Assembly (NCBI GenBank): GCA_031179215.1
Contig: JAPSIA010000004.1
Location: 1 to 38,058, forward strand
Direction: 5' to 3'
Source: Agrococcus sp.
GTDB taxonomy: Bacteria; Actinomycetota; Actinomycetes; Actinomycetales; Microbacteriaceae
DNA length: 38,058 bases
Below, in pieces: positions 1 through 38,058 of the stretch (its first letter is position 1; each line of letters starts with the position of its first letter). A model generated the notes under the pieces. It was given only the letters and a program-made list of their open reading frames with translations. It searched no databases and was not told the origin of the DNA. The position numbers and the translations under genes were made by a program.

Positions 1-127
1 CGTCGCGGAGCAGAAGGTCACGCTCGCGAACCGCAAGCTCGACAAGGCCGTCTCCAAGGGCGTCATCCACAAGAACCAGGCCGCGAACCGCAAGTCGGCC
101 ATCGCGAAGCAGGTCGCGTCGCTCTGA
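1..127 (+). CDS. rpsT: 30S ribosomal protein S20, C-terminal part (5' cut by window edge)
   Basis: The first 127 bases hold the last 41 codons of a small basic protein, read in the frame starting at base 2 and ending in TGA at 125-127. The residues ([19 protein letters not shown], then a basic ending in QVASL) match the C-terminal helix of ribosomal protein S20, which binds 16S rRNA in the 30S body. The start lies outside the window. A strong hairpin terminator follows 7 bases after the stop. The gene converges on holA, as is usual in actinobacteria; between the two lies the 20-bp repeat array. Confidence 0.93.
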
Positions 128-134
128 CCTGAGC

Positions 135-180
135 CGCACGCGAAGGAGGGGTCCCGGCCGGGGCCCCTCCTTCGCGTGCG
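135..180 (+). terminator. rpsT terminator hairpin
   Basis: A perfect 17-bp stem pairs 135-151 with 164-180 around a 12-base apex that can pair further (153-155 with 161-163). It begins 7 bases after the rpsT stop. There is no clear T-tract, as is common for high-GC actinobacterial terminators. It separates rpsT transcription from the repeat array that follows. Confidence 0.85.
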
Positions 181-220: not shown

Positions 221-600
221 CTGGCGGCTCCCGCCAGCCATCGGCGCCTCCCAGCATCGAGCGGCGCCTCCCAGCATCGAGTGGCGCCTCCCAGCATCCA
301 TTGGCGCCTCCCGCCGCCCATTGGCGCCTCCCGCCGCTCAGGGGCGCCTCGCGGCATCCATTGGCGCCTCCCAGCATCGAGTGGCGCCTCCCGGCATCGA
401 GTGGCGCCTGCCGGCATCCGATGGCGCCTCCCGCCGCCCATTGGCGCCTCCGGCCGCCTAGTGGCGCCTCGCTGCATCCATTGGCGCCTCCCACTGCCCG
501 TTGGCGCGTTCCAGCATCGGTTGGCGCTTCCCGGCGTCCTTTGGCGCTCGCCGGCATCTGTAGGCGCCTCTCCACATCGAGTGACGGCTTCCCTGATCGG
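221..600 (+). repeat. 20-bp GGCGCC tandem array, forward arm (about 19 units)
   Basis: Nineteen contiguous units of exactly 20 bp start at 221, 241, 261 and so on to 581, with no insertion or deletion. The consensus is GGCGCCTCCCAGCATCGAGT. Fourteen units keep the palindromic core GGCGCC at offset 3-8 (the units at 241-481 and 561). The units at 221, 501, 521, 541 and 581 are degenerate, so decay is concentrated at the edges. The second half of the unit comes in two main types: CAGCATCGA or CGGCATCGA, and CGCCGCCCA. The junction to the next core is mostly GA-GT or CA-TT. Long stop-free frames cross the array on both strands only because the unit lacks stop codons; I see no credible gene. Confidence 0.95.
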
Positions 601-670
601 GCGGGTGTTGCCAAGGCGCGGGAGCGCATCCTGCGGGGGTGCGCCGAGGGCGGCCTTCGGCACGCGCGCT
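601..670. other. 70-bp spacer between the two array arms
   Basis: This segment separates the forward and inverted arms. It has no 20-bp unit. It contains an imperfect inverted repeat around 639-663 (GTGC-CCGAGG against CCTTCGGCAC) that could form the tip if the two arms pair. No gene, promoter or known element was recognised. Confidence 0.6.
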
Positions 671-845
671 GAAAGGCGCCACTCGATGCTGCAAGGCGCC
701 ATTCGATGCTGCAAGGCGCCACTCGACGTGGAGAGGCGCCACTCGATGCTGCAAGGCGCCATTCGATGCCAGCAGGCGCCACTCGATGTGGAGAGTCGCC
801 GATGGATGCTGGGAGGCGCCACTCGAGGTGGGGAGGCGGCGGGGG
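671..845 (-). repeat. 20-bp GGCGCC tandem array, inverted arm (8 units plus a partial)
   Basis: Units of exactly 20 bp start at 671, 691, 711, 731, 751, 771, 791 and 811, and a degenerate partial unit runs from 831 into the holA stop codon (846-848). Seven of the eight full units keep GGCGCC. Read on the minus strand the consensus is GGCGCCTTGCAGCATCGAGT, which differs from the forward arm only around positions 8-9. The arm is therefore the same repeat in inverted orientation. Relative to each flanking gene (rpsT on plus, holA on minus) the repeat reads in the same direction, so the region is mirror-symmetric. No terminator was seen between holA and this arm. Confidence 0.94.
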
Positions 846-1835
846 CTAGGCGGCGCGGCGCTCGGCGAGCTGCCGCACGAGGCGCTCGACCGCGAAGTGC
901 GGGTCGCGCTCCGCGCCCTTCACCGCGTGGTCGGCGCGCGCGATCGCCTCGATCGCGTCGCACAGCGTCGCATCGGTGAAGCCGCGCAGGTCGCGCCGCG
1001 CGTTCTGCAGCTGCCAGTCCTGCATCCCCAGCTGGCGCGCGACCTGCGCTCCGCCGCCCGAGACGCCCGAGACCTTCGCGAGCTGCCGGAAGCGCATCGC
1101 GAACGCGGCGACGATCGGCACGGGATCCGCTCCCGTCGCGATGGCCTGCCGGAGGGTCACGAGCGCCTTCGCGGTGTCGCCCGCGACCACCGCGTCGACG
1201 ACGGCGAACGCGGTCGTCTCGACGCGGCCGGCGTAGTAGGTGCGAACGACCTGCTCGGTGACGGGGCCCTCGGTGTCGAGCGCGACCTGCCGGATGGCGT
1301 TGGCGAGCTCGGCGATGTCGGAGTGGAAGGCGTCGACGAGCGCCGCGATCGCGCCGGGGGTCGCCTCGCGCTCGAGCAGGCGCAGCTCGTTGCGCGCGAA
1401 CGGCACGAGCTCGCCCCGGCCGAGCGGCTGGCACACGACCTCGAGCGCGCCGGGCGTCGAGCGGATCGCGTCGAGCAGCTTCTTGCCGCGCACCGTCGAG
1501 CCGTCGTGGCGGATGACGAGCGTCGTGCCGTCGACCGGTGCGGCGAGGTAGCGCAGGGCGTCGGCGATGAACGCATCCGTCGCCTTGACGCCGTTCGCGA
1601 CGCGCACGAGGCGCGGCTCGTCGAACAGCGACGGGCTCGCGATGAGCTCGAGCGCGCCGTCGGTGTACTGGCCCGCGTCGAGGTCGGAGACCTCGAGCTC
1701 GGGGTCCTCCATGACGAGCAGCGACCTCAGCCGCTGCAGCGCGCGGTCGGCGAGGAACGACTCCTTGCCGAACACGAGCACGACCGGCGCGGGAGAGACC
1801 TGGTCCCAACCGATCTTGGGGATGCTCGCCGCCAT
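846..1835 (-). CDS. holA: DNA polymerase III subunit delta
   Basis: The 329-residue product is the delta subunit of the clamp loader, which opens the beta sliding clamp and loads it on primed DNA. The N-terminus has the family segment VFGKESFLADRALQRLRSLL (about residues 20-40), followed by the usual RLVRVANG strand and the C-terminal helical collar domain (AFAMRFRQLAKVSG). Length is normal for the family. It is the last gene of comEA-comEC-holA, 9 bp after the comEC stop. The ATG at 1833-1835 is preceded by TAGGCT and a 6-nt spacer with no usable ribosome site, so it probably also has its own leaderless promoter inside the end of comEC. The stop codon touches the inverted arm of the 20-bp array. 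Confidence 0.93.
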   Translation of the reverse strand: MAASIPKIGWDQVSPAPVVLVFGKESFLADRALQRLRSLLVMEDPELEVSDLDAGQYTDGALELIASPSLFDEPRLVRVANGVKATDAFIADALRYLAAPVDGTTLVIRHDGSTVRGKKLLDAIRSTPGALEVVCQPLGRGELVPFARNELRLLEREATPGAIAALVDAFHSDIAELANAIRQVALDTEGPVTEQVVRTYYAGRVETTAFAVVDAVVAGDTAKALVTLRQAIATGADPVPIVAAFAMRFRQLAKVSGVSGGGAQVARQLGMQDWQLQNARRDLRGFTDATLCDAIEAIARADHAVKGAERDPHFAVERLVRQLAERRAA

Positions 1836-23197: not shown

Positions 23198-23270
23198 CGC
23201 CCCCGGCGGGAGTCGAACCCGCGACAAAAGGATTAGAAGGCCTCTGCTCTATCCGCTGAGCTACGGGGGC
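23198..23270 (-). tRNA. tRNA-Arg (anticodon TCT)
   Basis: A 73-nt cloverleaf on the minus strand. The acceptor arms are GCCCCCG (23264-23270) and CGGGGGC (23199-23205). The D arm has GCTCAGCGGATAGAGC, the anticodon loop CTTCTAA gives TCT, and the T arm has GCGGGTTCGACTCCCGC. CCA is not encoded. TAGATT ends 6 nt before the first tRNA base, so transcription may start at or next to the mature 5' end. Confidence 0.96.
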
Positions 23271-24840: not shown

Positions 24841-24913
24841 GTGGGTATAGCTCAGTTGGTAGAGCGCCTGGTTGTGGTCTAGGAGGTCGCGGGTTCAAGC
24901 CCCGTTACTCACC
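24841..24913 (+). tRNA. tRNA-His (anticodon GTG)
   Basis: A 73-nt cloverleaf: acceptor GTGGGTA (24841-24847) with TACTCAC (24906-24912), D arm AGCTCAGTTGGTAGAGC, anticodon loop TTGTGGT giving GTG, T arm GCGGGTTCAAGCCCCGT. The base before it (G at 24840) can pair with the discriminator C (24913), the encoded G-1 that histidyl-tRNA synthetase requires. CCA is not encoded. The last 19 bases overlap the 3' end of the convergent DUF3253 gene. Confidence 0.95.
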
Positions 24914-31730: not shown

Positions 31731-31768
31731 GAGGTGCCTTCCACTCGGTGTGATGGCACGGGCGATGG

Positions 31769-31857
31769 TGTCTCCCTGCGCTGGCATGATCCAGATCAGG
31801 TTCGACGGTCGAAGGCTTCGGCCTTCCTCTCAGCCCGGCGCACCGGACTCCCGTGTC
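31769..31857 (-). promoter_or_regulatory. TPP riboswitch aptamer (THI element)
   Basis: On the minus strand the conserved TPP-aptamer blocks appear in order: CTGAGAG (31827-31833), CCTGATCTGG (31791-31800), ATGCCAGCG (31779-31787) and AGGGA (31773-31777). The aptamer ends about 40 nt before the ykoE ATG. No clear T-tract terminator is visible in that gap, and the AAGG ribosome site lies at its end, so translation control is more likely than termination. Confidence 0.93.
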
Positions 31858-37776: not shown

Positions 37777-37808
37777 CGTCCTGCTCCCGTTCCGTCGTGC
37801 CCGGCAGG

Positions 37809-38042
37809 GGCGGTCCCTGAGGAGCCGCCGGAGGCGGCGTCTCGAAGGGCGGTCCCTGAGGAGCCGCCGGAGGCGGCGTCTCGAAGGGCGGCCCCTGAGG
37901 AGCCGCCGGAGGCGGCGTCTCGAAGGGCGGCCCCTGAGGAGCCGCCGGAGGCGGCGTCTCGAAGGGCGGTCCCTGAGGAGCCGCCGGAGGCGGCGTCTCG
38001 AAGGGCGGTCCCTGAGGAGCCGCCGGAGGCGGCGTCTCGAAG
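37809..38042 (-). repeat. 39-bp palindromic tandem array, six units
   Basis: Six contiguous units of exactly 39 bp start at 37809, 37848, 37887, 37926, 37965 and 38004. Every unit has the arms CCCTGAG and CTCGAAGGG around the perfect hairpin GCCGCC-GGA-GGCGGC. The only variation is one base near the start of the unit (GGTCCC in units 1, 2, 5 and 6; GGCCCC in 3 and 4). The sequence after unit 6 diverges at 38045. The arms resemble the dispersed CCCTTCGA...CAGGG palindromes frequent in actinobacterial intergenic DNA, here amplified in tandem. It lies 33-266 bp upstream of the gatB start and would be part of a gatB leader or of a gatA-gatB spacer transcript. Confidence 0.95.
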
Positions 38043-38058
38043 GGTCGTGAGGATGCCG

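What the first reader, a model, noticed from the sequence alone, without database searches (positions are those of the whole stretch)
221..845. Inverted array of exact 20-bp GGCGCC units filling the rpsT-holA convergent region
About 27 units of exactly 20 bp lie in two opposed arms (19 forward, 8 plus a partial inverted) around a 70-bp centre. The palindromic core GGCGCC occurs 21 times in about 600 bp; at about 73% GC roughly 1.4 would be expected by chance. There are no indels, so spacing seems to be under constraint or recently made by duplication. Twenty bp is close to two helical turns, so the cores lie almost on one face of the helix, as expected for a cooperative protein-binding array. 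Relative to each flanking gene the repeat reads in the same direction. I know of no described element with this layout; a site for a nucleoid or partition-type protein, a decoy array, or a huge RNA hairpin are all open.
Basis: partly seen in the sequence, partly recalled or inferred. Interest (0 to 1): 0.85.

Follow-up and report, generated by a model that had tools for sequence, protein, structure and literature searches.

The report
Repeat arrays paired with a nuclease
A two-armed array of 20-letter DNA repeats between two genes of a soil-type bacterium belongs to a repeat family scattered through its genome, and the same repeats bracket one gene for a probable DNA-cutting enzyme; relatives of that enzyme are usually bracketed by repeats of their own, which suggests an undescribed partnership of enzyme and repeats.

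Summary
The array is real: 19 + 9 twenty-bp units in two opposed arms, window 222-601 and 668-845. It is not unique: the genome, an Agrococcus, has 13 such sites. Paired arms always face inward; arrays favour 3'-3' gaps and shun divergent ones.

At one site the arms enclose a gene for an AbiEi-like / Vsr-fold nuclease (DUF559/PF18741). Orthologs in other Agrococcus are enclosed likewise although the unit's sequence differs; the 20-bp period persists. Homologs elsewhere in Microbacteriaceae share an inverted repeat between their two flanks in 16 of 26 loci, against 1 of 26 for pyruvate kinase. The repeats are private: flanks match within a locus in 32 of 38, between paralogs of one genome in 2 of 58. 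In two other genera the flanking palindrome has about 45 places genome-wide.

Best reading: a gene-less, dispersed member of a repeat family owned by a cognate nuclease; it works like a REP/REPtron with an unrelated enzyme. The association is shown; binding, cutting and copying are inferred. Ten literature searches found no description.

The parts
1..127 (+). 3' end of rpsT (S20)
   Evidence: open frame called; S20 match (L077)
135..180 (+). GC-rich hairpin after rpsT, probable intrinsic terminator, lies before the array
   Evidence: inverted repeat 135-157 / 158-180, 96% complementary; terminator role inferred
222..601 (+). left arm, 19 units of 20 bp, sense of the unit TGGCGCCTCCC...GAG
   Evidence: to 581; last unit by eye
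602..667 (.). centre between the arms, no gene found in it
   Evidence: sequence; no nuclease homolog lies on this contig
668..845 (-). right arm, 9 units of 20 bp in opposite orientation
846..1835 (-). holA, convergent neighbour
   Evidence: ORF; homologs

Best explanation
The array is a gene-less, dispersed member of a repeat family whose partner is one nuclease gene elsewhere in the genome (G000:C180:24659-25537), which sits between two inward-facing arms of the same 20-bp unit. The protein joins an AbiEi-like N-terminal part to a C-terminal Vsr / I-Bth0305I-type nuclease. SHOWN: the family, inward-facing arms, bias to 3' gaps, the nuclease between two arms in its orthologs, private repeats around most nuclease paralogs, genome-wide dispersal of such repeats in two other genera, predicted folds. 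INFERRED: the AbiEi-like part binds the repeat, each 20-bp unit offering a site about every two helical turns; the nuclease nicks or cuts at or near it; repair copies units within an array (tandem growth) and now and then to new places; copies last mainly where they harm no promoter, that is beyond gene 3' ends. It would thus work like a REP/REPtron with an unrelated enzyme.
Against: No binding, cutting or movement was observed. 10 of 26 outside-genus loci, 5 of 19 further paralogs and 1 of 26 in-genus loci show no shared inverted repeat. The three 58-63% homologs (G007, G009, G017) lack clear two-sided period-20 arrays. G006 and G010 dispersed units fit other genomes' profiles better, and the rpsT-holA gap matches the own nuclease flank first in only 4 of 12 testable genomes. 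G005 keeps both arms with a broken nuclease gene. The pyk control is a housekeeping gene; isolated accessory genes were not used as control.
Confidence: 0.6

Rival explanations
1. Neutral satellite: the arrays grow and spread by replication slippage and recombination without a dedicated enzyme; the nuclease gene happens to lie in repeat-rich gaps.
For: Copy number and unit sequence change quickly between species; close relatives lack the array at rpsT-holA. Arrays lie where insertion is harmless.
Against: Repeats are private to each paralog (2 of 58 cross-matches); the association holds in other genera and on plasmids; off-phase spacings are rare, 11 of 651.
Confidence: 0.15
2. The arms are 3'-end elements: bidirectional terminator or stabilising RNA hairpin of the upstream genes.
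For: In co-directional gaps the arm that is sense to the upstream gene is present in 28 of 29 and is the only arm in 14, the other arm alone in 1. Window 221-845 folds as RNA far better than 20 shuffles, z -9.4.
Against: 7 of those 14 single arms are one orthologous site. Both arms occur in 14 of 29 co-directional gaps, so half of these put an arm just before a downstream gene. A hairpin already follows rpsT before the array. The fold follows from the inverted arms and is not independent evidence. It does not explain the nuclease between arms.
Confidence: 0.1
3. Architectural site of the BIME type: the periodic sites bind gyrase or a nucleoid protein and absorb supercoils between convergent genes.
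For: Bias to convergent gaps: 33 convergent, 29 co-directional, 2 divergent against 5, 47, 30 in array-free gaps of 100 bp or more; period near two helical turns.
Against: Many convergent gaps in related species lack arrays; the unit changes between species; no such protein was tested.
Confidence: 0.08
4. Operator only: the repeats beside the nuclease gene are autoregulatory sites of its AbiEi-like part and the dispersed arrays are titration sites; nothing is cut or copied.
For: AbiEi and Rv2827c autoregulate through inverted repeats (PMC7319586, abstract); AbiEi-like fold.
Against: An operator is not needed downstream of the gene nor at some 45 other places; residues of the nuclease domain such as E189, D221, H238 and D247 are invariant in 30 homologs.
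Confidence: 0.07

Closest known systems
REP / BIME / REPIN with RAYT (TnpA-REP), the REPtron
   Same: A single enzyme gene flanked by inverted repeats that are dispersed, mostly extragenic, and specific to that gene (PMC6006769 and PMC3733652, passages).
   Different: The enzyme is an AbiEi-like / Vsr-fold nuclease, not an HUH tyrosine transposase; in Agrococcus the repeat is a pair of inward-facing tandem 20-bp arms rather than a short tagged hairpin.
Type IV toxin-antitoxin AbiE (AbiEi, Rv2827c)
   Different: A nuclease domain is fused to it, and the neighbouring genes encode an ANTAR regulator and a thioesterase, not a DUF1814 toxin.
EDxHD homing endonucleases (I-Bth0305I) and Vsr
   Different: Free-standing gene between repeat arrays; no intron or intein context was seen; target and activity unknown.
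Insertion sequences and MITEs
   Same: A gene between inverted repeats, plus gene-less copies of the repeats.
   Different: The gene-bearing copy lies at one orthologous site across species while gene-less arrays are many; the encoded protein matches no transposase family in Pfam.

Membership tests
REP/REPtron (RAYT) | Enzyme gene flanked by repeats of the dispersed family | tested here: met
   dispersal in G000, G030, G091
REP/REPtron (RAYT) | Partner is an HUH (Y1) tyrosine transposase | tested here: not met
   30 of 30 homologs scanned against Pfam match only MTES_1575, DUF559 or DUF2726 at E 0.01; nuclease fold
REP/REPtron (RAYT) | GTAG or CGTC tag at one end of the repeat | not tested
   no tag search was made
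REP/REPtron (RAYT) | Enzyme binds and cleaves the repeat | not testable with these tools
   needs purified protein
BIME / gyrase-type sites | Binding of gyrase or a nucleoid protein | not testable with these tools
   needs ChIP or EMSA
AbiE type IV toxin-antitoxin | AbiEi-like DNA-binding protein | tested here: inconclusive
AbiE type IV toxin-antitoxin | Adjacent AbiEii (DUF1814) toxin gene | tested here: not met
   the genes on either side in G000 are ANTAR regulator and 4HBT thioesterase
EDxHD / Vsr nucleases | Vsr-like fold with conserved catalytic residues | tested here: met
   E189, D221, H238, D247 invariant in 30 sequences; that these are the EDxHD residues is recalled and inferred, not mapped on the structure
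EDxHD homing endonucleases | Homing into its own cleavage site | not testable with these tools
   needs cleavage and transfer assays
Insertion sequence | Encodes a transposase | tested here: not met
   no transposase family among Pfam matches of 30 homologs

The most novel reading that the evidence does not exclude
AbiEi-like / Vsr-fold nucleases of Actinomycetota form a class of repeat-propagating enzymes independent of RAYTs: each paralog owns, recognises and spreads a private family of extragenic inverted repeats, and in Agrococcus its action has turned the palindrome arms into tandem 20-bp arrays such as the one in this window.
Probability: 0.45. Interest if true: 0.92.

Novelty: new variant of a known kind. 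Interest (0 to 1): 0.8.

Why it matters
REP repeats with RAYTs are the standard case of a dispersed bacterial repeat with a dedicated enzyme. A second, unrelated enzyme family with the same layout would mean that such partnerships arose more than once. It would suggest a function for a group of 'DUF559 / endonuclease domain' genes present in 43 of 60 sampled Microbacteriaceae genomes and an origin for many intergenic palindromes of these genomes. Because a paralog usually carries its own repeat beside it, enzyme-target pairs can be read from sequence and tested directly.

Tried and rejected

Rows dropped before counts: outside-genus nuclease 26 of 28 loci (two too short), in-genus 26 of 30 (two too short, two being pieces of the broken G005 gene), pyk 26 of 28, HolA 21 of 23, further paralogs 19 of 20 (the one cut by a contig end scored 23.9 on a shorter flank). 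Plasmid homologs used slightly different flank windows and no control of their own; scores 22.0 to 28.2. G030 and G091 searches scored 40 of 50 and 40 of 109 first-look candidates, so their counts are lower bounds; for G091, 44 of 86 rows were merged by script and the other 42 seen by eye to overlap them. Array gaps come from patterns that require GGCGCC- or TGGCGC-type triplets, so arrays with other units are missed. Genes are from my own codon-usage caller, not an annotation.

Papers: PMC3710099, PMC3733652, PMC6006769, PMC12308824 and PMC12306157, passages only; PMC7319586, abstract and section list; all others search listings only. 'No description found' rests, in an open-access library without preprints.

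Full report
1. The observation. The two-armed array is as described: 21 GGCGCC between 243 and 820, 18 + 9 positions in 20-bp phase at one mismatch or fewer, and a 19th degenerate left unit by eye. The contig belongs to G000, an 88% complete genome in 231 contigs. Its HolA is 85-91% identical to that of six named Agrococcus and 57% to A. jejuensis.

2. It is a family. A search of the own genome with the array found further sites. Thirteen loci, the window included, carry arms of the unit. The pattern GGCGCC(N14)GGCGCC(N14)GGCGCC occurs 92 times in G000, in 13 of 24 Agrococcus genomes and in none of 36 others searched; the reversed control pattern gave 0 to 3 per genome. A position matrix grown from 230 seed units gives the sense consensus TGGCGCCTCCCGCGCCCGAG (position 17 is C or T about equally), most informative at TGG, T8 and A19.

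3. Anatomy and place. I collected 67 array gaps from 9 genomes; the nuclease site counts as two gaps in each genome where both are seen. Of the 64 gaps with both neighbours called, 34 hold one + and one - arm and all 34 show + first; 28 hold a single arm; one has two - arms and one has + - -. Classes are 33 convergent, 29 co-directional, 2 divergent and 3 at contig ends. Array-free gaps in the same loci are 5, 47 and 30 at 100 bp or more, and 22, 93 and 67 at 30 bp or more; convergent against divergent at 100 bp, Fisher p 4e-12. Of 651 spacings 627 are 20 bp, 13 are 40, and 11 are not a multiple of 20, against 1481 mismatches to the arm consensus among 15,140 positions. In co-directional gaps both arms occur in 14, the sense arm alone in 14 (7 of them the one orthologous nuclease site) and the antisense arm alone in 1.

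4. The rpsT-holA gap through the genus. The gap was read in 21 of 31 loci (some genomes appear twice); in 10 the S20 query found no rpsT in the locus. By eye a hairpin follows rpsT in these gaps. Beyond it some species have 20-bp arrays of another unit (G018, GAGTGGCCGCGTCCGCGCTT), some have other repeats (G002, with GGTACC), and G005, G008, G012, G021 and G023 have short gaps without an array. The array is a replaceable occupant, not a fixed part of rpsT or holA.

6. The nuclease is bracketed by arrays. Tandem Repeats Finder shows period-20 arrays on both sides of the ortholog in G000, G001, G004, G005, G006, G010, G011, G013, G016, G018, G019, G020 and G022, and on one side in G014, where the contig ends. 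Units differ, for example GAGCGGTCACTCCGGAGCCT in G001 and a GGCCAAT type in G010, but the period stays 20. The 58-63% homologs of G007, G009 and G017 lack clear two-sided arrays. Some more distant homologs at other sites have arrays of period 20 or 21 on both sides (G008, two loci of G021) or one side (G023); others have none. Among 125 genes next to an array, the 6 with arms in both adjacent gaps are all this nuclease.

7. Beyond the genus. For 26 homologs (34-43% identity) from other Microbacteriaceae, the upstream and the reverse-complemented downstream flank align above the 99th percentile of mispaired flanks in 16; in direct orientation 14; in either 18. At the same threshold pyk gives 1 of 26 inverted and 1 direct, HolA 0 of 21, in-genus nuclease loci 25 of 26, of which 12 are one orthologous site. 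Nineteen further paralogs at other sites in the genus give 14. Four plasmid homologs, three from Arthrobacter and one from Tsukamurella, give 4 of 4. Many flank repeats are palindromes of some 50-90 bp. In G030 the palindrome CATCGAGTGGGCAGTTTGGGCCC...GGGCCCAAACTGCCCACTCGATG is at 45 places; in G091 its counterpart is at 44; the G091 query found nothing in G067. CATCGAGTGG is shared, by eye, with the unit of this window.

8. Privacy. Within a genome, flanks of different paralogs match in 2 of 58 comparisons, flanks of the same gene in 32 of 38. This argues against the idea that these genes merely sit in gaps full of one common repeat. Dispersed units fit the profile of their own genome's nuclease site best in 5 of 7 genomes; G006 and G010 rank fourth. 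For the single rpsT-holA gap the own nuclease flank is best in G002, G007, G011 and G017 only, 4 of 12.

9. Mechanism. The layout is that of a REPtron with dispersed repeats (PMC6006769, PMC3733652, passages), but the partner enzyme has another fold. AbiEi and Rv2827c bind inverted repeats (PMC7319586, abstract), so I infer that the N-terminal part recognises the repeat and the nuclease acts on it. How copies arise is open; cut-and-repair copying and unit duplication are the simplest guess. The 3'-gap bias may reflect selection against copies in promoters. The strong RNA fold (z -9.4 against 20 shuffles) follows from the inverted arms and is not separate evidence.

10. Verdict. Observation confirmed; the guess of a protein-binding array partly supported; the GGCGCC core not. 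I rate it a new variant of the repeat-plus-cognate-enzyme kind. It is not a member of RAYT/REP, because the partner is no HUH transposase.

Noticed in passing
window 37808-38044: A second tandem array at the contig end: 39-bp unit GGGCGGTCCCTGAGGAGCCGCCGGAGGCGGCGTCTCGAA, 6.1 copies, 98% matches; its unit is unlike the 20-bp unit.
   Followed up: no
L202 and L212 (G005): The closest relative by HolA (94%) has the array-site nuclease in two pieces with an internal TGA, while both arms remain.
   Followed up: partly
L098 and L099, rpsT-holA gap (G015, G003): This gap carries another inverted repeat, ACACTTCTCGGTCTATG...CATAGACCGAGAAGTGT type, unlike the nuclease flanks seen in those genomes.
   Followed up: partly
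L316, L320, L321, L323, L327, L329, L330, L333, L334: Other nuclease paralogs in the genus carry their own flank repeats, e.g. GGTACC-type, CGCAGAGTGCCGGAACTCTGCG-type and GACTGGTCGCAGTT-type.
   Followed up: partly
L150 (G095), L151 (G164): 20-bp GAGTGG arrays in another genus of the family; fetched, not analysed.
   Followed up: no
phage record MT837503.1, 4989-5930: A 33% identical homolog of the nuclease in a 6.7-kb record named Bacteriophage sp..
   Followed up: no
window 31756-31855 (-), 23198-23270 (-), 24841-24913 (+): TPP riboswitch and two tRNAs.
   Followed up: no
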